From: Limnothrix sp. CACIAM 69d
GTDB lineage: Bacteria; Cyanobacteriota; Cyanobacteriia; CACIAM-69d
Direction: 5' to 3'
DNA: 64,000 nt
Assembly (NCBI GenBank): GCA_001913845.2
Contig: MKGP02000063.1
Coordinates: forward strand, 62,001-126,000
Positions 15,030 through 23,582 of this stretch are shown piece by piece (position 1 is the stretch's first letter; each line of letters opens with the position of its first letter). The translations under genes were made by a program, and so were the position numbers. Under the pieces are notes generated by a model, which was given only the letters and a program-made list of their open reading frames with translations, did not search any database and was not told the origin of the DNA.

Positions 15030-18000
15030 ATGTCTAGTATTTATGACAATATCAATCAACCCATCCTGCCTGAGTTACAGCATTACCTGAAGCAGTCCTA
15101 CCGTGCTGATTTCTGTGTGGGCTATTTTAACTTGCGGGGATGGCGACAAATTGATGCTGATATTGAGCAATTTGAGAGAGGTGAGGGGCAAACTTGTCGA
15201 TTACTGGTGGGGATGTATCGTTTGCCAAAAGAAGAACTTCGGCAAGCATTAGCGATCGGGGTGGAACCAGAGCGAATTGATCAGGGGCAGGCAATTCGAC
15301 TACAAACCTTGATGGCCCAAGAGTTTCGTCAGCAGTTGACCTATGGTGCGCCCAGCGCTGCTGATGAGGAGGGGTTACAGCGCTTGCGGCGGCAGTTATT
15401 GACCGGAAAACTTCAAGTCAAGCTATTTTTACGACATCCTCTCCATGCCAAGCTATATCTAATTTATCGCTGCGATCGCGCCACGCCCATTATTAGTTAT
15501 GTGGGCAGCAGTAACCTGACCTTATCAGGGTTGAGATCTCAGGGTGAGTTAAATGTGGAAGTGGTCGATCGGGATGATACGAGTAAGTTGGAACAGTGGT
15601 TTGAAGAGCGCTGGGATGATCGCTTCTGCTTGGATATTACGGAGCAACTAGCAGAAATTATTGATGAAAGCTGGGCAGGGCGATCGCTCAAACCCTATTT
15701 TATCTATTTAAAAATAGCCTACCACTTATCCCAAGAAGCGCGGGATGGGTTGAGTCAATATCGCGCCCCTGCTAGCTTTGGACTGCTGCCATTTCAGGAA
15801 GCAGCGGTTCAAATTGCGGCACACCATGTCAGCAAACGGAATGGGGTGATTATTGGCGATGTGGTGGGATTGGGCAAAACTTTGGTGGGGACAGCGATCG
15901 CCCATCTTTGTGAAGAAGATTATGGCACTAGCACACTGATCATCTGCCCAAAGAATCTGGAAAGCATGTGGCAGGGTTATATTGATCGCTATGGTTTGCG
16001 GGGCAAGGTAGTGCCGATGAGCCGAGTGATTCAAGAACTACCCAATATTCCGGCGCGGTTTCGGTTAGTTTTAATTGATGAAAGCCATAACCTGCGAAAT
16101 CAGGAAGGCAAGCGATATCAAGCCATCAAAGACTACATTGAACAGAGCGGAAGTCGCTGTATTTTGCTGACAGCGACTCCCTACAATAAAACCTATCTGG
16201 ACTTGTCAGCGCAGTTACGGTTATTCCTGCAACCCGATGCTGATTTAGGGATTAAGCCAGAAGCCTACATTCGTAGTATTGGCGGTGAAATGCAGTTTCG
16301 CCGTAAACATAACACTAGCCCAGTCCGATCGCTGTTGGCTTTTGAGCAGAGTCCAGAACCTGAAGATTGGCAGCAGTTGATGAGTCGCTACATGGTGCGG
16401 CGAACACGCAGTTTTATCAAAAATACCTATGCGAAACGGGACGGCGAACGATTTTATCTAGAATTTGCTGATGGTCGGCGATCCTATTTACCCATTCGTC
16501 GTCCTCGGACGGTTCGCTTCACGGTCGGGGAGCCACAAAGCGATCCCTACGCTCGGTTGTATAGCGATCGCGTGGTGGATGTGATTAATGCCCTGAATTT
16601 GCCTCGGTATGGTTTGGGCATCTATCAAGACCCCAAACCCAAGCAATTACCCACCGATGAGGAACAAAAACTATTAGCTAATCTTTCCTATGCAGGCCAG
16701 CGGCTGATGGGGTTCTGCCGCACGAATTTGTTTAAGCGATTGGAGAGTAGCGGGGCTGCTTTTGTGCAGTCATTGGAGCGGCATATTCTGCGAAATTATG
16801 TGTATCTCCATGCGATCGATCATGATCTTCCCCTGCCGATTGGGACTCAGGATGCTGCATTACTCGATGAGGTGGGCAATGATGAAGATTTGCCCCTGAG
16901 TCAGGATTGGGAAGCCTCTGAGGAGATGACGGAGACTTTGGATACAGCAGATGCTTTAGATGAAGAAGGGATTAAACCGCAGCAGAATTTTGCCCAACGG
17001 GCTGCAGAGATCTATCATTTGTATCGAGAGCAATATTCCCGTCGATTTAAATGGATTCGCGCCAATCTATTTCGTTCAGAGTTACGGTACAACCTTCAGC
17101 AGGATGCCGCCGCTTTGATCGGAATTTTGCAACTGGCGGGGAATTGGAATCCATCGTTGGATGGCAAGCTAGGGGCGCTGGTGGCGTTATTACAACAGCA
17201 ACATCCGACCGAGAAGGTGCTGATTTTCACGCAGTTTGCAGATACGGCGCGGTACTTAGCAAGAGCGCTTGCAGCACAGGGCATTCAGAAAGTCGGTTCA
17301 GCAACGGGACAATCGGCTGATCCGACAACTTTAGCATGGCGATTTAGCCCGATTAGCAATCAAAAAGACATCCCAGAAACGGATCAATTGCGGGTGTTAG
17401 TCGCAACGGATGTGTTGAGCGAGGGGCAGAACCTGCAAGATTGCGCCATTATCCTCAATTACGATTTGCCCTGGGCGATTATTCGTTTGATTCAGAGGGC
17501 GGGGCGGGTTGATCGGATTGGGCAACAGGCGGAGGAGATTCTTTGCTATTCGTTTTTGCCTGCGGAGGGAGTCGAGCGGTTGATTAACCTGCGGGGACGA
17601 TTGCGCGATCGCCTGAACGAAAACCAAGAGGTTGTGGGCACAGACGAAGCGTTTTTTGAGGATGAACAAGCGCAGGAAATGCTGCTGAATCTCTACAACG
17701 AGCGATCGGGGGTGCTGGATGAGGTTGATGAGGGAGAGGTAGATTTAACCTCGGAGGCGTTGCAGATTTGGCAAAGTGCGATCGATGCGAATCCGGCACT
17801 CAAGGGCATGATTGAAAAGCTGCCCGATGTGGTCTATGCCACCCGCGAGCATGAACCAACGGGCGCTGATCCCGAGGGTGTTTTGCTGTACCTCCGCACC
17901 GATGGTGGTACGGATGCGTTGGCATGGGTGGACAAAGACGGCAACAGCGTCACGCAGTCGCAAATGCGAATTTTACGGATGGCTCGGTGCAGCATTGATA

Positions 18001-18416
18001 CGCCGTCTTTGCCCCGCCACCCTCAGCACCATGAGTTGGTGATGCGCGGATCGGAGCTGATTGCCGAGCAGACCAAGACTGTGCCGGGGACACTGGGTAA
18101 CAAGCGCAGTGCAGCGGCGCGGACTTACGATCGCCTGTTGGCATACGCCCAACAGGTGCGCGAAACGACACCGTTGCTAGCGATGGGGACAGAATGGGAA
18201 AGCCTGGAACGGGCGATCGAGGAAATTAACCAACATTCCTTGAAGCAAAATGCGATCGCGCGTCTAAATCGAGAACTCAAGGCGGGAATTAGTGATGAGC
18301 AGTTGGCAAAACTGGTGATATTCCTGCGAGAGCATGACGCACTTTGTGTCATCAATCTAGATGAACGTCGAGATGGGGCACGGATTATCTGCTCAATGGG
18401 ATTATTTAGGGGTTAG
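15030..18416 (+). CDS. PLD-like domain + SNF2-family helicase, anti-phage type
   Basis: 1128 residues from the ATG at 15030. Residues 1-230 form a phospholipase-D-like module: FCVGYFNLRGW, then HAKLYLIYRCD (H139, K141) and VGSSNLTLSGL, a single HKD-type half-site with a shifted aspartate. A SNF2/RapA-type helicase follows: Walker A GDVVGLGKTLVG (K283), DEAH-box variant LIDESHNLRN (D350), LLTATPYNKT, and in the second lobe KVLIFTQFADTARYL, VATDVLSEGQNLQ and LIQRAGRVDRIGQ. The remainder is helical with no assignment. Such PLD-SNF2 fusions occur in defence islands, and here two DUF29 genes and an Eco57I-type methylase follow on the same strand. The likely role is ATP-driven translocation on DNA coupled to cleavage. 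Motifs are clear; the defence role is inferred from context. Confidence 0.82.
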   Translation: MSSIYDNINQPILPELQHYLKQSYRADFCVGYFNLRGWRQIDADIEQFERGEGQTCRLLVGMYRLPKEELRQALAIGVEPERIDQGQAIRLQTLMAQEFRQQLTYGAPSAADEEGLQRLRRQLLTGKLQVKLFLRHPLHAKLYLIYRCDRATPIISYVGSSNLTLSGLRSQGELNVEVVDRDDTSKLEQWFEERWDDRFCLDITEQLAEIIDESWAGRSLKPYFIYLKIAYHLSQEARDGLSQYRAPASFGLLPFQEAAVQIAAHHVSKRNGVIIGDVVGLGKTLVGTAIAHLCEEDYGTSTLIICPKNLESMWQGYIDRYGLRGKVVPMSRVIQELPNIPARFRLVLIDESHNLRNQEGKRYQAIKDYIEQSGSRCILLTATPYNKTYLDLSAQLRLFLQPDADLGIKPEAYIRSIGGEMQFRRKHNTSPVRSLLAFEQSPEPEDWQQLMSRYMVRRTRSFIKNTYAKRDGERFYLEFADGRRSYLPIRRPRTVRFTVGEPQSDPYARLYSDRVVDVINALNLPRYGLGIYQDPKPKQLPTDEEQKLLANLSYAGQRLMGFCRTNLFKRLESSGAAFVQSLERHILRNYVYLHAIDHDLPLPIGTQDAALLDEVGNDEDLPLSQDWEASEEMTETLDTADALDEEGIKPQQNFAQRAAEIYHLYREQYSRRFKWIRANLFRSELRYNLQQDAAALIGILQLAGNWNPSLDGKLGALVALLQQQHPTEKVLIFTQFADTARYLARALAAQGIQKVGSATGQSADPTTLAWRFSPISNQKDIPETDQLRVLVATDVLSEGQNLQDCAIILNYDLPWAIIRLIQRAGRVDRIGQQAEEILCYSFLPAEGVERLINLRGRLRDRLNENQEVVGTDEAFFEDEQAQEMLLNLYNERSGVLDEVDEGEVDLTSEALQIWQSAIDANPALKGMIEKLPDVVYATREHEPTGADPEGVLLYLRTDGGTDALAWVDKDGNSVTQSQMRILRMARCSIDTPSLPRHPQHHELVMRGSELIAEQTKTVPGTLGNKRSAAARTYDRLLAYAQQVRETTPLLAMGTEWESLERAIEEINQHSLKQNAIARLNRELKAGISDEQLAKLVIFLREHDALCVINLDERRDGARIICSMGLFRG

Positions 18417-18493
18417 CCTAGAGTAATCCTGGCAGGCTGAAGAGCATTACATTAGAGCATTAAACTGTTGAATATTCCCAAGGAGATTCACCA

Positions 18494-18973
18494 ATGTTTC
18501 CGACCCAAAATCTCAACCTCCTCTATGACCAAGATATTTTGCTGTGGGCAGAAGATACAGTTGCCAAACTAAGAGCGAGGGACTTCGAGCACCTCGATCT
18601 TGAACATTTGATTGAAGAGGTAGAAGCATTGGGAATTTCGCAAAAAAAGGAGCTGATTAGCCGCCTGATTGTTTTATTAGAACACCTGTTGAAGCGGTTG
18701 TATGTCAACTTGCCCCATGACTATAACGGATGGGAGCGAACGATTCGGACGCAGCGAGGAGAGCTGGAAGTTTTGTTGGATGCTGTTCCTAGCCTCAGTG
18801 GTCGATGGGAACTCAGCTTTGATAAAGCTTGGCAAATTGCTCTAAAAAATACGCGAAAGGAATATCCAAAAATTCCCTTTCCGGCAGAATGGCCCTATGA
18901 TCGCTCGATCGAGTCAATCTTAAATCACGACGTGTGGCTAGAAGCATCCGAAGAACCTGAAGAATCCGAATAA
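18494..18973 (+). CDS. DUF29 family protein, first of a pair
   Basis: 159 residues, all-helical DUF29 pattern: LLYDQDILLWAEDTVAKLRA, then LDLEHLIEEVEALGISQKKEL, LIVLLEHLLKRLY and GWERTIRTQRGELEVLL. A good ribosome binding site (AAGGAG, 9 nt) precedes the ATG. DUF29 proteins are abundant in cyanobacteria, often in several copies near mobile or defence genes, and have no settled function. It lies 77 nt after the PLD-SNF2 gene and 7 nt before a second DUF29 gene, so all three are probably one transcript. The paralogues share motifs but are clearly diverged. No catalytic residues or signals are visible. Confidence 0.85.
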   Translation: MFPTQNLNLLYDQDILLWAEDTVAKLRARDFEHLDLEHLIEEVEALGISQKKELISRLIVLLEHLLKRLYVNLPHDYNGWERTIRTQRGELEVLLDAVPSLSGRWELSFDKAWQIALKNTRKEYPKIPFPAEWPYDRSIESILNHDVWLEASEEPEESE

Positions 18974-18980
18974 AACAAAG

Positions 18981-19427
18981 ATGTCATCTAATCTTTATGA
19001 AGCCGATTTCTATGCCTGGACACTAGAACAATCTAGGTTGCTCAAGGCGGGAGACCTCACACATCTGGATGTTGTGAACTTGGTAGAGGAAATTGAGTCT
19101 TTGGGAAAACAGCAGCGCCAGGAGCTGAGAAACCGGCTGGGAATTTTGATTGGGCATCTGTTGAAGTGGAACTACCAACCCGACAAGCGCAGTAAAAGCT
19201 GGCGAGTGACGATCCGTGAGCAACGGCGAGAAATTTTGCAACTCTTGAAGGAAAATCCTAGCCTAAAGCCCTATTTAATAGAGGCGATCACCTTGGCTCA
19301 CAAGTCTGGGTTAGACTTGGTGGTTAAGGAAACCCCTTTAGATGACGAAGATTTACCCGAAGATTGTCCTTACAGCGCCGAGCAACTGTTTGATCCTGAC
19401 TTTCCGGTTGACTTAAACCTGACCTGA
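18981..19427 (+). CDS. DUF29 family protein, second of a pair
   Basis: 148 residues. It shows the same DUF29 layout as its upstream neighbour: YEADFYAWTLEQSRLLKAGDL, VVNLVEEIESLGKQQRQELRN, LIGHLLKWNYQP and SWRVTIREQRREILQLL, with an acidic C-terminal tail ending PDFPVDLNLT. It starts only 7 nt after the previous stop and ends 11 nt before the next ATG, so it is embedded in the cassette. Function is unknown. Two unlike DUF29 copies between a helicase and a methylase may have a joint role in the system or be passengers; the sequence does not decide. Confidence 0.83.
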   Translation: MSSNLYEADFYAWTLEQSRLLKAGDLTHLDVVNLVEEIESLGKQQRQELRNRLGILIGHLLKWNYQPDKRSKSWRVTIREQRREILQLLKENPSLKPYLIEAITLAHKSGLDLVVKETPLDDEDLPEDCPYSAEQLFDPDFPVDLNLT

Positions 19428-19438
19428 GCTAAAAGGCC

Positions 19439-19843
19439 ATGCCGCTCCATCGCCAACGCGCCCAAAAGTATCTCCAGCAGTTTGATTTTGAGTCTTTGTT
19501 CATTGAAGAACTGGGCTGGGATGGGGTCGATCGCGTCATGCTGCCCTTCGAGATGGACGGCGAATATTTTGAGGTGGTTTCCATTGCCCAAAAGCGTGGC
19601 TTTACAGTCTTTAAGTGCATCACGGCTGAGATTCCAGCCCGTCCCATTCGGGTGAAACTCGATCGACAGTTGACGGATTACAGCAAATCGCACCTGTTGG
19701 TGTTTGGGGATGAGGGCAAAACGCAGCAGGAATGGTTGTGGCTGAAGCCAGAAATTAAGCAGGGCAAAAGTAAAAGGGAAAAGGAAAAAGTACAGAGACA
19801 GGGACATCGACAAGGGCAGTGCGATCGCACTCCTATAAGGTGA
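19439..19843 (+). CDS. N-terminal piece of the Eco57I-type restriction/methylase protein (frame-separated)
   Basis: 134 residues: MPLHRQRAQKYLQQFDFESL, then FIEELGWDGVDRVMLPF, IAQKRGFTVFKC, and DYSKSHLLVFGDEGKTQQEW. This pattern is what I expect at the N-terminus of the long cyanobacterial Eco57I-type restriction-modification proteins, directly before the QNPEALLQKLEAL region that opens the next frame. The reading frame switches between the two pieces. From 19762 the sequence becomes a purine-rich repeat (KQGKSKREKEKVQ), and both frames are open over 19774-19843. A repeat-associated frameshift has therefore probably split one gene, unless the two pieces now work as separate proteins or frameshifting occurs. 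A weak ribosome binding site (AAAAGG) precedes the ATG. Confidence 0.72.
   Translation: MPLHRQRAQKYLQQFDFESLFIEELGWDGVDRVMLPFEMDGEYFEVVSIAQKRGFTVFKCITAEIPARPIRVKLDRQLTDYSKSHLLVFGDEGKTQQEWLWLKPEIKQGKSKREKEKVQRQGHRQGQCDRTPIR
19762..19790 (+). repeat. purine-rich short repeat inside the split methylase gene
   Basis: GGCAAAAGTAAAAGGGAAAA and the next few bases match the (A)nGG/GT(A)n repeat family seen at 21050, 22782, 22991 and 23448. It lies exactly at the frame change between the two pieces of the methylase gene. Confidence 0.75.
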
Positions 19844-22800
19844 GCCAAAATCCTGAAGCCTTGCTGCAAAAGCTAGAGGCGCTGATTGTCGATTTAAGGG
19901 AAGAAGGCAATCTAACCCATGTGGATGTGGCCCAAAAGGTCAAACAGGGGTTTGATATTGATCGGGTAACGAAGCAATTCTTTCAAGATTTTGAGGGATT
20001 GCACCAGACGTTTTGCTTAGCGATCGAGGGAATCGATTCAGAGAGTGATCGCCGTTGGTATGCGTCGGTGTTGCTGAATCGGCTGATGTTCGTCTATTTC
20101 TTGCAGCGGCGCTACTTTCTAGACAATCAAGATGCGCTGTACTTACAAAATAAATTGCAATTTTGCCAGCAGGAAGGCAGAAATTTTTATGAGTTTCTGA
20201 AGGAATTATTTTTTGTTGGATTTGCAGAACCGGAATATCTACGCGATCCAGAGATTCAGAAACGCTTAGGCAAGATTTGTTATCTGAATGGGGGCTTGTT
20301 TTTACGTCATGCCGTTGAGCAGAAATATGATCAAATTCAGATCAACGATCGCGCTTTTTCGCAGGTTTTTGATCTGTTTGCTCGCTATTCCTGGCATCTG
20401 GACGATCGCCCCGACAAAGACCCCCTCGAAATTAACCCCGATGTGTTGGGCTATATTTTCGAGAAATACATTAACCAAAAAGAGTTTGGGGCATACTACA
20501 CCCGGCCGGAAATTACTGAGTATCTTTGCGATCGCACGATCAATAAATTGGTGCTCGATCGGGTCAATGGTCTAGGCTATGCCTTCGATGATTTGGGGGC
20601 ATTGCTCGGGGGCTTGGATGCGGCTCTCTGTCAGGCACTGCTCAATGAGATTTTACCAACCCTAACGCTGCTCGATCCGGCCTGTGGGTCGGGGGCTTTT
20701 TTGGTGGCGGCGATGAAAACCTTGATTGGGATTTATCAACGGGTGGTCGAGCGAGCAACGGGGTTTGCGGATCAGCCGGGGATTGCTCAATGGTTGAATG
20801 AATCGGCTCGACATCCTTCGTTGGAGTACTACATCAAGAAGCGGATTATTACCGACAATCTCTATGGTGTAGACATCATGGAGGAAGCAACGGAAATTGC
20901 CAAGTTGCGGCTGTTTTTAGCGTTGGTTTCTTCAGCAAAAACGGTTAATGATTTGGAGCCTTTGCCGAATATTGATTTCAATATTATGGCGGGCAATTCG
21001 CTGATTGGGTTGATTCGGGTTGATGCGGAAGGGTTTGATCATTTAAGTCAAAAGGAAAAAGGTAAAGGGCAACAGGCAAGGCTCATTGATCCGGTGCAAG
21101 GGAATCTGTTGGGGCCGACGGTGGTTCAGGGCAACTTGTTGCAGGGGTTGGCGGCTTCGGAGTATCAGCAAATTTTGGAGGACAAAAACCGCAGCATTGC
21201 TCTTTATAAAAAACACGCTTTTCAGCAAGCGGATGCGGAATTGCCGCAGGAAACTCGCCTGTTGCAGTTGCGTGACCACATCGATAAGCTGAACCGGGAG
21301 TCGCAAAGGAAGCTGAATCAGTTGTTGTTGGATGAGTTTAGTCAGCGGTTGGGGATTAAGTATGAGCAAGCCCAATTGGTGGGAAAACCCCAAAAGCGGC
21401 TGTTAACTATTGCGGATATTGATGCTTTAGAGCCGTTTCACTGGGGCTACCATTTTGATCGGGTGTTTGCGCAGGGTGGGTTTGATGCGATTATTGCGAA
21501 TCCACCTTACGAAACCTTTAAGCCTCAAGCCAAAGAGTTTTTTGCGTATTACAGCGATCTTGTCCAAAAGAAAAAGATGGACATTAAAGCATTTGAAAAA
21601 GAACAGAAGAAACTGCTGCAAGATCCAGAAATTGCTCAGGCTTGGTGTGAGTATCAAAGCCAATTTCCCCACGTTAGCAGCTACTTCCGTTCTACAGAAC
21701 AATACAAAAATCAAATATCAATTGTTAATGGTAAAAAAGCTGGAACAGATATCAATCTCTATAAACTTTTTTTAGAGCAATGTCTTAATTTGTTGCGCAC
21801 TAGCGGTCGTTGTGGAATTATTATCCCTTCAGGTATTTACACAGATCTGGGTGCTAAACAACTCCGTGAAGTGTTGTTTTCTCAAACAGCATTAGACACG
21901 TTGTTTGGTCTGTCAAATGAAAAATTCATTTTTGAAGGCGTACATCATAGCTTTAAATTTGCATTGCTAACATTCGAGAAAGGAAAACAAACTGAGGCAT
22001 TTAATGCAGCTTTTCGGATTAATCCTAGAGAAGCAATTAGAACTAACGAATTATCAAAATTTCTTTACGATACCAATCAACAACTTCGATTATCAGTATC
22101 ACTTGTGCGGCAATTGTCGCCCGATTCGCTGTCGGTGATGGAGTTTAAGCAGCCGATCGATATTGCAATTGCCCAAAAGATGCTTAAATTTCCCTTACTG
22201 GCCGAAAAGATTGATGGCAAGTGGAACTTTGTATTATGGCGAGAACTTGATCGAGGAAATGATGCAAATATATTTCAAACTGAATGCACAGAAGGTTCTC
22301 TACCGCTCTTTACTGGTAGGATGTTCAATCAATTTTGCCTTACAGGTGAAACAGCACCTTACTGGGTTCAAGAAAATCTAGGTCGAAAAGTGCTGATTGG
22401 AAAGAGTACAGATGAGAATCAAAAACTCAACTATGAGCAATATCGTTGGGTTCACCGTCGTATTGCCCGTAATACAGATTCTCGTACCCTGATCACAACC
22501 ATTTCGCCTCGCAAGGTATTTTGTGACAATAATAGCACAACTATAGATCTAAGAAAATCCAAAATTTCACTTAAAGAAATGATTCTTCTCTGCTCAGTGT
22601 GTAATTCCTTTGTGGTTGACTGGTTGCTGCGTCAAAAGATAACCACTACGCTAAACATGTTTTACATTTATCAACTTCCTGTTCCTCGACTTCAAGAAGG
22701 TGACCAATGGTTTGCTGAAATCGTAGAACGCGCTGCCAAACTGATCTGCACTACCCCCGAATTTGACGACCTGCTGGAAGAAGTAAAAAGTAAAAAGGCG

Positions 22801-22995
22801 AAAGGTAAAAGTGCGGAGATTGTCGGGGTGACGGATGAGGCAGAGCGGGCGAAATTGCGAGCCGAACTCGATGGCATCATTGCCCACCTGTATGACTTAA
22901 CCGAAGCAGAATTTACCCATATCCTCAGCACCTTCCCGATCGTCCCCGACCCCGTGAAACAAGCCGCCCTCAATGCTTACCGCGAGTTAAGTTAA
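19819..22995 (+). CDS. Eco57I-type N6-adenine DNA methylase / restriction-modification protein (main part)
   Basis: Up to 1058 residues from a GTG at 19819; the true start may lie in the frame of the upstream piece. Residues 1-260 are helical (SQNPEALLQKLEAL, VTKQFFQDFEGLHQTF, WYASVLLNRLMFVYFLQRR). FGAYYTRPEITEYLCD precedes the methylase core with LLDPACGSGAFLVAAM (D286 on), NLYGVDIMEEATEIAKLRL, NIMAGNSLIG and NPPYE (561-565). A target-recognition region follows with ETAPYWVQENLGRKVLIGK, then NMFYIYQLPVPRL. This fits Eco57I/TaqI-class proteins that join methylation with a helicase or nuclease partner; the PLD-SNF2 gene upstream may be that partner. Lysine-rich inserts SQKEKGKGQQ and EVKSKKAKGKS correspond to purine-rich repeats inserted in frame. 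Catalytic motifs are intact. Confidence 0.85.
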   Translation: MRSHSYKVSQNPEALLQKLEALIVDLREEGNLTHVDVAQKVKQGFDIDRVTKQFFQDFEGLHQTFCLAIEGIDSESDRRWYASVLLNRLMFVYFLQRRYFLDNQDALYLQNKLQFCQQEGRNFYEFLKELFFVGFAEPEYLRDPEIQKRLGKICYLNGGLFLRHAVEQKYDQIQINDRAFSQVFDLFARYSWHLDDRPDKDPLEINPDVLGYIFEKYINQKEFGAYYTRPEITEYLCDRTINKLVLDRVNGLGYAFDDLGALLGGLDAALCQALLNEILPTLTLLDPACGSGAFLVAAMKTLIGIYQRVVERATGFADQPGIAQWLNESARHPSLEYYIKKRIITDNLYGVDIMEEATEIAKLRLFLALVSSAKTVNDLEPLPNIDFNIMAGNSLIGLIRVDAEGFDHLSQKEKGKGQQARLIDPVQGNLLGPTVVQGNLLQGLAASEYQQILEDKNRSIALYKKHAFQQADAELPQETRLLQLRDHIDKLNRESQRKLNQLLLDEFSQRLGIKYEQAQLVGKPQKRLLTIADIDALEPFHWGYHFDRVFAQGGFDAIIANPPYETFKPQAKEFFAYYSDLVQKKKMDIKAFEKEQKKLLQDPEIAQAWCEYQSQFPHVSSYFRSTEQYKNQISIVNGKKAGTDINLYKLFLEQCLNLLRTSGRCGIIIPSGIYTDLGAKQLREVLFSQTALDTLFGLSNEKFIFEGVHHSFKFALLTFEKGKQTEAFNAAFRINPREAIRTNELSKFLYDTNQQLRLSVSLVRQLSPDSLSVMEFKQPIDIAIAQKMLKFPLLAEKIDGKWNFVLWRELDRGNDANIFQTECTEGSLPLFTGRMFNQFCLTGETAPYWVQENLGRKVLIGKSTDENQKLNYEQYRWVHRRIARNTDSRTLITTISPRKVFCDNNSTTIDLRKSKISLKEMILLCSVCNSFVVDWLLRQKITTTLNMFYIYQLPVPRLQEGDQWFAEIVERAAKLICTTPEFDDLLEEVKSKKAKGKSAEIVGVTDEAERAKLRAELDGIIAHLYDLTEAEFTHILSTFPIVPDPVKQAALNAYRELS
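21050..21070 (+). repeat. purine-rich repeat, in-frame insertion in methylase gene
   Basis: AAAAGGAAAAAGGTAAAGGG, translated as KEKGKGQ between the methylase core and its DNA-recognition part. It belongs to the same repeat family as 19762. Confidence 0.6.
22782..22811 (+). repeat. purine-rich repeat, in-frame insertion near the methylase C-terminus
   Basis: AGTAAAAAGTAAAAAGGCGA followed by AAGGTAAAAG, translated as EVKSKKAKGKS. It belongs to the same family as 19762 and 22991. Confidence 0.6.
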
Positions 22996-23036
22996 AAGTA
23001 AAAGGGCAAAAGTAAAAAGTGAGGAGAAAAGAAAGA
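22991..23036 (+). repeat. purine-rich repeat at the end of the methylase gene
   Basis: GTTAAAAGTAAAAGGGCAAA and AGTAAAAAGTGAGGAGAAAA, starting within the methylase stop codon. Complementary pyrimidine-rich tracts at 23083-23114 allow a large hairpin upstream of the four-helix-bundle gene. Confidence 0.65.
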
Positions 23037-23082
23037 AACGAGATGTAAATGATGATTAATTATGAAAGCAAAGAGTCTACTA

Positions 23083-23114
23083 TTACTTTTGCCTTTCACC
23101 TTTTTACTTTTGCC
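23083..23114 (-). repeat. inverted copy of the purine-rich repeat
   Basis: TTACTTTTGCCTTTCACCTT and TTTACTTTTGCC immediately precede the ATG at 23115. This is the reverse complement of the repeat type at 22991. Reading it as coding gives FAFHLFTFA, which is why the longer frame starting at 23049 was not accepted. Confidence 0.65.
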
Positions 23115-23459
23115 ATGAAAGATATACGGGAGAGGGCATTTGAGTTCGCGGTGCGAATTGTAAAAGTCTGCCAGTTCTTGGATGAAAAGCCCGGAGTCAG
23201 TAGAACGTTGAGCAAGCAACTGCTGCGCTCTGGAACTTCCATTGGTGCCAATTTGGAAGAAGCTCAGGCGGGACAGAGTAAGGCAGATTTTATCAGCAAA
23301 AATTCGATTGCTCTCAAAGAAGCTCGCGAAACCCACTACTGGCTGAAATTACTTAGCGCCACAGGTATTCTTCCTGAAAACCGCATCATGGCCCTTCAAT
23401 CTGAAGCAGAAGAAATCATGAAAATCATTGGAGCAATTATTACTTCAAGTAAAAAGTGA
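23115..23459 (+). CDS. four-helix-bundle protein (23S rRNA intervening-sequence / S23 type)
   Basis: 114 residues from the ATG at 23115: MKDIRERAFEFAVRIVKVCQ, SRTLSKQLLRSGTSIGANLEEA, SKADFISKNSIALKEARET and YWLKLLSATGILPE. The block SGTSIGANLEEAQAGQSKADF is the family hallmark. Members form pentameric four-helix bundles and include proteins encoded by rRNA intervening sequences and the Avd accessory proteins of diversity-generating retroelements. Neither an rRNA gene nor a reverse transcriptase is present here, so the role is unknown. Purine-rich repeats flank it on both sides in opposite orientations, suggesting a small mobile or repeat-associated unit. Its last codons (SSKK) run into the downstream repeat. 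Confidence 0.85.
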   Translation: MKDIRERAFEFAVRIVKVCQFLDEKPGVSRTLSKQLLRSGTSIGANLEEAQAGQSKADFISKNSIALKEARETHYWLKLLSATGILPENRIMALQSEAEEIMKIIGAIITSSKK

Positions 23460-23509
23460 AAAGGAAAAAGGCAAATGATTTAAGTAAAAGGTAAAAAGGG
23501 AAAAGGAAA
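23448..23509 (+). repeat. long purine-rich repeat after the four-helix-bundle gene
   Basis: Two runs: AGTAAAAAGTGAAAAGGAAA and, after ATGATTTA, AGTAAAAGGTAAAAAGGGAA. They face the inverted tract at 23545-23582 and can pair with it. Confidence 0.7.
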
Positions 23510-23544: not shown

Positions 23545-23582
23545 CTCCTTTCGCCTTTTGCCTTTTCCCTTTTTCCTTTCTT
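23545..23582 (-). repeat. inverted purine-rich repeat before the ankyrin gene
   Basis: TCTCCTTTCGCCTTTTGCCT followed by TTTCCCTTTTTCCTTTC on the plus strand, the reverse complement of the repeat type at 23448. The pair could form a long hairpin that ends transcription of the cassette. Confidence 0.7.

What the first reader, a model, noticed from the sequence alone, without database searches (positions are those of the whole stretch)
15030..22995. PLD-SNF2 helicase, two DUF29 proteins and Eco57I-type methylase form one cassette
Four or five consecutive plus-strand genes with short spacings. The helicase combines an HKD-like nuclease with a SNF2 motor, and the methylase would mark self DNA. This resembles DISARM- or type-ISP-like logic but lacks drmA/drmB and is not a known named set to me. 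The two DUF29 genes inside the unit have no known function and could be working components.
Basis: partly seen in the sequence, partly recalled or inferred. Interest (0 to 1): 0.65.

Follow-up and report, generated by a model that had tools for sequence, protein, structure and literature searches.

The report
Restriction system with swappable cargo genes
This is a bacterial DNA-defence system made of a DNA-cutting motor and a DNA-marking, target-reading enzyme, and between those two genes cyanobacteria keep a slot that is filled again and again by small, mostly toxin-antitoxin-like genes, among them the DUF29 genes whose function nobody knows.

Summary
Five ORFs at 15030-22995 encode four proteins: a PLD(HKD)-SNF2 helicase, two DUF29 proteins, and one type IIG-like adenine methylase whose reading frame is broken near 19766-19818 (a one-A deletion relative to the sister species). 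The recurrent core is helicase + methylase: 40 of 386 cyanobacterial genomes have the helicase, and relatives occur in several other phyla. Of 38 loci re-fetched with wide flanks, 36 have the methylase beside the helicase; the other two end at contig ends. It is not DISARM, type ISP or Hma. A ~106-residue N-terminal methylase domain stays with the helicase, while methylase body and recognition domain are swapped between near-identical helicases. In cyanobacteria the gap between the two genes is a cargo slot for PIN/VapC, HicA, MazF-Phd, MNT-HEPN, Uma2, Rpn-like and DUF29 genes. DUF29b is a real passenger: a single clade travelling with the helicase between families. DUF29a is a later, unrelated arrival. 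DUF29b is deleted in the sister species, so DUF29 is accessory, not core. Best reading: a two-subunit, ATP-dependent restriction-modification system with an accessory, possibly guard or addiction, slot. DUF29's activity remains unknown.

The parts
15030..18416 (+). PLD(HKD)-SNF2 helicase-nuclease (HEL), 1128 aa from ATG 15030 (TTG 15012 also possible). HxK...GSxN nuclease motif at residues 139-164, Walker A at 276-284, DESH at 350-353, helicase motif VI at 822-832.
   Evidence: Pfam PLDc_2, SNF2-rel_dom, Helicase_C; PADLOC C3a139 'HKD+Snf2'. Motifs conserved in 39-40 of 40 relatives. dN/dS 0.067 against the sister species.
18417..19438 (+). Cargo slot between helicase and methylase. Here it holds two DUF29 genes; in other cyanobacteria PIN/VapC, HicA, MazF-Phd, MNT-HEPN, Uma2, Rpn-like or DUF2281 genes, or nothing.
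   Evidence: Slot survey, Pfam of slot ORFs against flank ORFs, recurrence test, annotated cases in Synechocystis 6803 pSYSX and Picosynechococcus.
18494..18973 (+). DUF29a, later arrival in the slot; nearest relative is a non-slot DUF29 of another genome
   Evidence: Pfam DUF29 6e-37; tree; 95% aa identity and dN/dS 0.087 against the sister species
18981..19427 (+). DUF29b, member of the slot-specific DUF29 clade; all-alpha fold as in PDB 3FCN
   Evidence: Pfam DUF29 1e-50; slot clade support 98/93 over 11 sequences; AF2 model pLDDT 89.6; 3FCN Z 10.9, rmsd 5.3 over 132 residues; 308-bp deletion in the sister species
19439..19756 (+). MTn: N-terminal ~106-aa domain of the methylase; topology of a type IIG nuclease domain without a conserved catalytic D/E/K set; stays with the helicase when the rest is swapped
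   Evidence: PADLOC PDLC03628 positions 1-113; AF2 segment pLDDT about 84-92 and DrdV N-domain match Z 6.4; conservation; mosaic identities
19757..19818 (+). Purine-rich variable linker with the frameshift (one A fewer than in sister species G033)
   Evidence: Alignment of ten loci; the motif recurs 6 times in the window against 0.01 expected
19819..22995 (+). Methylase body: HsdM-like helical part, gamma-type N6-adenine methylase (DPACGSG, NPPY), target-recognition domain and C-terminal part
   Evidence: Pfam Eco57I 4.5e-24, MmeI_Mtase; PDLC03628 369 bits; alignment
22024..22683 (+). Approximate target-recognition domain, exchanged relative to the sister species
   Evidence: 39% aa identity to sister species against 83-94% for the methylase parts before it and 79% after it
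23049..23459 (+). Neighbouring four-helix-bundle (23S rRNA IVP family) gene, outside the core
   Evidence: Pfam 23S_rRNA_IVP 4e-24; also present in sister species L063

Best explanation
The core is a two-subunit, ATP-dependent restriction-modification system. The methylase subunit reads a DNA site through its C-terminal recognition domain and marks an adenine in self DNA. When the site is unmethylated it recruits, through its N-terminal domain, the PLD-SNF2 subunit, which translocates on DNA and cuts with its HKD nuclease. The methylase N-domain looks like the nuclease domain of a type IIG enzyme that has lost its catalytic residues and now serves as the docking piece, so specificity can be changed by swapping the methylase body or recognition domain while helicase and docking piece stay. 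Between the two genes cyanobacteria keep a cargo slot that captures small, mostly toxin-antitoxin-type genes, read on the same strand in most cases. They plausibly stabilise the locus or act as a fail-safe when restriction is inhibited, as PrrC does for EcoprrI. DUF29b entered the slot once and has travelled with the helicase since; DUF29a is a later arrival. Shown: gene content, recurrence, motifs, domain mosaicism, slot statistics, DUF29b monophyly, purifying selection, frameshift. Inferred: restriction activity, docking role, methylation, any guard or addiction role of the slot, and that the split methylase of this genome still works.
For: Helicase-methylase pair in 36 of 38 wide-flank loci, the other two cut by contig ends, in several phyla and on plasmids. 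All nuclease and motor motifs conserved. Methylase motifs DPACGSG/NPPY. Structure matches: BrxX/PglX and HsdM for the body, and the N-terminal domain of DrdV for MTn. MTn has no D, E or K conserved as a catalytic set. Mosaicism: L003 against L065 has helicase 94%, MTn 79%, body 57% then 26%; window against sister has the recognition domain at 39% with flanks at 79-94%. Slot: 29 of 72 slot ORFs have a homologue in a slot of a different helicase group, against 11 of 327 flank ORFs (Fisher p 7e-16; 4 of those 11 are DUF29 directly upstream of the methylase). Slot ORFs hit only 20 Pfam families, none metabolic, against 144 in the flanks. DUF29b clade 98/93; helicase tree consistent with one gain and one loss. 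PrrC precedent: PMC3874165, PMC12707154.
Against: No activity has been shown. In Synechocystis 6803, whose pSYSX carries an intact-looking copy, the SMRT motifs reported are GATC, GGCC, GAAGGC and GGAN7TTGG (PMC7296061), which appear to be assigned to other enzymes. This system's methylase may therefore be inactive there or unassigned. The window's methylase frame is broken. The MTn nuclease-fold match is modest (Z 6.4) in a model that is poor overall (pLDDT 56). Slot cargo could be hitchhiking. One locus with the helicase (L005) seems to lack the methylase, though its contig ends nearby.
Confidence: 0.6

Rival explanations
1. DUF29 proteins are true working components of the restriction machine in this clade, for example as a regulator or adaptor of the methylase or helicase.
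For: DUF29b is a monophyletic, slot-specific lineage conserved over distant cyanobacterial families; DUF29a is under purifying selection. In the MT-first loci L086 and L091, DUF29 genes also sit directly upstream of the methylase, from a different DUF29 lineage.
Against: Near-identical helicases (L003, L081) lack DUF29. DUF29b is deleted in the sister species. Most of the family has no DUF29 or has toxin-antitoxin genes in the same place.
Confidence: 0.15
2. The slot is only a neutral landing site: abundant small cyanobacterial genes drift in and out, and DUF29 hitchhikes.
For: DUF29 and toxin-antitoxin genes are abundant in these genomes (26-34 DUF29 matches in some). Some slots hold opposite-strand or unidentified ORFs. 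The flanks also hold some toxin-antitoxin genes.
Against: Slot contents differ strongly from the flanks. G011 has only 3 DUF29 in 5.5 Mb and one lies in the slot. DUF29b has been kept across families.
Confidence: 0.2
3. The window copy is a decaying relic: the broken methylase leaves a helicase that is inactive or kept for another role.
For: One-base deletion in the linker; other broken copies occur in the family (L080, L098-L100, L010).
Against: Helicase, MTn and body are under strong purifying selection (dN/dS 0.07-0.08). A type I methylase split into two genes (slr6095/slr6096) is active in Synechocystis 6803 (PMC7296061). An assembly error cannot be excluded.
Confidence: 0.25
4. It blocks phage without cutting, in the way of BREX, with the PLD domain used only for DNA handling.
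For: The methylase body resembles BrxX/PglX.
Against: The HKD motif is conserved in essentially all members. The methylase scores far below PglX cut-offs, and the cassette holds no PglZ- or BrxC-like protein.
Confidence: 0.08

Closest known systems
DUF499-centred BREX-related Type-2 (BR, 'Hma') systems, PMC12839542
   Same: HKD nuclease fused N-terminally to a SNF2 helicase, plus an N6-methylase
   Different: No DUF499 ATPase in the cassette (the only one in the genome is on another contig), no DUF3780 match; helicase only weakly like HmaA (64 bits against 158 for C3a139)
Type IIG / MmeI-like enzymes (PADLOC PDLC03628; DrdV)
   Same: Methylase with N-domain, helical part, methylase and recognition domain in one chain; PDLC03628 appears to be the model of the Synechocystis pSYSX member
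   Different: N-domain without conserved catalytic residues, and a regular genetic partner that carries the nuclease and motor
Type ISP enzymes (LlaGI, LlaBIII)
   Same: Motor, nuclease, methylase and recognition domain combined; presumed translocation
   Different: ISP is one polypeptide with an Mrr-like nuclease (PMC3874165); here separate chains and a PLD nuclease
CglI / NgoAVII
   Same: A three-gene restriction system with a helicase-type ATPase acting with a nuclease (PMC4267653); that the nuclease is of the PLD kind is from my own knowledge
   Different: Nuclease and ATPase on separate chains there, fused here; separate methylase without the type IIG architecture
SauUSI (type IV)
   Same: N-terminal PLD plus helicase in one chain (PMC12707154)
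   Different: SauUSI reads modified cytosine with its own SRA-type domain and has no partner methylase
EcoprrI with embedded prrC
   Same: Accessory gene inside a restriction operon; prrC is a tRNA nuclease released when restriction is inhibited
   Different: Here the accessory genes are many interchangeable families; no guard function tested

Membership tests
DISARM | drmA helicase and drmB (DUF1998/MZB) next to the methylase | tested here: not met
   No PF09369 match in the whole genome while controls ring; no DrmA/DrmB among the cassette proteins
DISARM | Helicase over the NCBIfam DrmD cut-off | tested here: not met
   149 bits against 610
BR Type-2 / Hma | DUF499 AAA+ ATPase in the locus | tested here: not met
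   Only DUF499 of the genome is on contig C46, the cassette on C63
BR Type-2 / Hma | DUF3780 protein | tested here: inconclusive
   No match in the genome, but no control genome rang either
BR Type-2 / Hma | HKD-SNF2 helicase and N6-methylase | tested here: met
Type ISP | Single polypeptide with nuclease, motor, methylase and recognition domain | tested here: not met
   Separate genes in the window and all relatives
Type IIG | Gamma-type methylase plus recognition domain in one chain | tested here: met
   PDLC03628, Pfam Eco57I/MmeI_Mtase; in the window the frame is broken
Type IIG | Active N-terminal PD-(D/E)XK nuclease | tested here: not met
   No D, E or K conserved as a catalytic set in MTn over 40 relatives; sequence and model only, no activity test
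BREX | PglX-level methylase and PglZ | tested here: not met
   62 bits against 500 for BREX-1 PglX; no PglZ in the cassette
CglI/NgoAVII | Nuclease and ATPase on separate proteins | tested here: not met
   Fused in one ORF
Restriction-modification (general) | Methylation of a motif and cleavage of unmethylated DNA | not testable with these tools
   Needs SMRT/nanopore methylome and cleavage assay
DUF29 (PF01724) | Profile match and 3FCN fold | tested here: met
Type II toxin-antitoxin (for DUF29) | Constant cognate partner gene | tested here: inconclusive
   No regular partner seen by size and strand beside 45 non-slot DUF29 loci; homology of neighbours not compared

The most novel reading that the evidence does not exclude
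The slot is a plug-in bay: the two-subunit system guards itself with interchangeable growth-arrest modules, and DUF29 is a new such effector (for example an RNase; its helical bundle resembles the C3PO/translin RNases weakly) that is set free when phage inhibits restriction.
Probability: 0.1. Interest if true: 0.8.

Novelty: new variant of a known kind. Interest (0 to 1): 0.5.

Why it matters
It turns two proteins annotated only as 'helicase-related protein' and 'DNA methyltransferase' in many genomes, including the model strain Synechocystis 6803, into one recurrent system with a testable division of labour. It suggests how a type IIG enzyme could become a translocating two-subunit enzyme (its own nuclease decays into a docking domain and specificity becomes swappable). 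It also gives DUF29, a family with up to dozens of copies per cyanobacterial genome and no known function, a conserved functional context in which it can be tested.

Tried and rejected
DISARM, type ISP, Hma, BREX and CglI membership were each tested on defining features and not met. Phage origin: no relatives in viral contigs or phage records. Chance adjacency of DUF29: rejected by clade structure and genome counts. DUF29 literature: no paper in the library names DUF29 as a whole word. DUF29 fold: only 3FCN, itself of unknown function, stands out; malate-synthase and C3PO matches are at the level expected for any helical bundle. Empty site in the same-family genome G133: flanking genes not found there, so no answer. 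Full-length methylase model: poor apart from the N-terminal ~300 residues. PADLOC family C3a139 could not be traced to a paper here.

Full report
**What is there.** The window is G000:C63:62001-126000 of a 4.57-Mb cyanobacterial genome in 100 contigs. The stretch reads, all on the plus strand: helicase 15030-18416; DUF29a 18494-18973; DUF29b 18981-19427; ORF 19439-19843; ORF 19819-22995; then a four-helix-bundle gene 23049-23459. The helicase has an N-terminal PLD domain and a SNF2 motor. PADLOC places it nearest to C3a139 'HKD+Snf2', well below the DISARM DrmD cut-off.

**The methylase is one gene with a broken frame.** The ORF at 19439 matches positions 1-113 and the ORF at 19819 matches positions 116-362 and beyond of one PADLOC type IIG model. 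In the sister species G033 the whole is one ORF. The window differs by one missing A in a purine-rich linker. Closely related motifs occur six times in the window, all in or beside this locus, against 0.01 expected, so the linker resembles a dispersed cyanobacterial micro-repeat. It cannot be decided here whether the gap is real, an assembly error, or tolerated as a split protein. A split type I methylase is active in Synechocystis 6803 (PMC7296061).

**The helicase-methylase pair is the unit.** The helicase was found in 40 of 386 sampled cyanobacterial genomes, in Verrucomicrobia, Planctomycetes, Acidobacteria, Betaproteobacteria and Bdellovibrionota and in 24 plasmid records including Rhodococcus. 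It was not found in phages. Of the 38 loci L063-L100 fetched with wide flanks, 36 have the methylase next to the helicase; the other two stop at contig ends. Outside cyanobacteria the two genes are mostly abutting or overlapping, and in some lineages the order is methylase first. Catalytic motifs of PLD and motor are conserved in essentially all members.

**Modular specificity.** Pairwise domain identities show near-identical helicases with different methylases. L003 and L065 share 94% in the helicase and 79% in the methylase N-domain, but 57% and then 26% in the body. The window and its sister share 92% in the helicase and 83-94% in the methylase parts before the recognition domain, but 39% in that domain. 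In the predicted model this N-domain has a nuclease-like order of strands and helices and matches the N-terminal domain of the type IIG enzyme DrdV (Z 6.4, rmsd 3.8 A over 105 residues). No catalytic D/E/K set is conserved. The following part matches HsdM and BrxX. A decayed nuclease turned docking domain is the simplest reading; it is an inference.

**The slot.** In cyanobacteria the gap between helicase and methylase often holds small genes. Across 69 slot ORFs only 20 Pfam families appear. They include DUF29, PIN, nucleotidyltransferase, HEPN, HicA, HicB-like, PemK/MazF, Phd, Uma2, DUF559, DUF4351/DUF2887 and DUF2281/DUF2283/DUF4258; none is metabolic. 124 flank ORFs from the same loci hit 144 families, many of them metabolic in the part of the list shown. 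29 of 72 slot ORFs have a homologue in a slot of a different helicase group, against 11 of 327 flank ORFs (p 7e-16; size-matched p 1e-11). Closely related helicases carry different cargo (L066 against L083). RefSeq annotates the slot of Synechocystis 6803 pSYSX and of Picosynechococcus as a hypothetical gene plus a VapC toxin.

**DUF29.** The slot DUF29b sequences of about ten loci from several families form one clade (98/93, 11 sequences) apart from all other sampled DUF29 of the same genomes. DUF29a groups elsewhere, and the DUF29 genes upstream of the methylase in L086 and L091 are a third lineage. On the helicase tree the DUF29 label needs two changes, compatible with one gain and one loss. 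In the sister species DUF29b has lost 308 bp while DUF29a is kept with dN/dS 0.087. DUF29 thus recurs because it travels with the helicase, but the system does without it. The fold is that of 3FCN, a protein of unknown function. Conserved polar or aromatic residues over 64 sequences include Y6, D9, W13, D30, E36, E37, H59, K62, W74 and R82; their role is unknown.

**Mechanism.** Best reading: a two-subunit, ATP-dependent restriction-modification system with an accessory slot. The PrrC precedent, a suicide nuclease embedded in a restriction operon and released on inhibition (PMC3874165 and PMC12707154), makes a guard role for slot genes plausible but untested. A caution: the reported methylome of Synechocystis 6803 lists four motifs (PMC7296061). 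GATC is attributed to M.Ssp6803III, GGCC to M.Ssp6803II and GGAN7TTGG to slr6095; GAAGGC belongs to M.Ssp6803IV, which from my memory is sll8009 on another plasmid (not verified here). This system's methylase may therefore be silent in that strain.

**Verdict.** A real, recurrent and, as far as I could find, unnamed system; a new variant of a known kind rather than a new kind. DUF29 remains unexplained, but now has a defined context in which it can be tested.

Noticed in passing
window 19766-19784, 21050-21068, 22994-23012, 23452-23470, 23554-23579: Purine-rich repeat AAAAGTAAAAGGGAAAAGG occurs 6 times (0.01 expected), inside and between genes of this locus; one copy lies in the methylase linker and carries the frameshift.
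   Followed up: partly
L063 8187-12431: The sister species' methylase carries extra in-frame stretches such as PHPLAPSPKTGEGGQE, which look like in-frame insertions of dispersed repeats.
   Followed up: no
L086 13695-15288 and L091 14114-14584: In methylase-first loci, DUF29 genes of a different lineage sit directly upstream of the methylase, three in a row in L086.
   Followed up: partly
L150 15441-15821 and L151 14415-14795: DUF2513 gene directly after the methylase in Synechocystis 6803 pSYSX and Picosynechococcus, a possible second accessory position.
   Followed up: no
L150 16294-18548: A multiubiquitin-E2-ThiF/E1-like cluster lies next to the system on pSYSX, suggesting a defence-rich plasmid region.
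   Followed up: no
L005 11316-13337: Helicase and DUF29b are followed by a remnant of the four-helix-bundle gene with no methylase between; either the methylase was lost or the contig is misjoined.
   Followed up: no
G000:C46:64369-65616 (L129): A DUF499 ATPase elsewhere in the genome, probably a separate BREX-related system.
   Followed up: no
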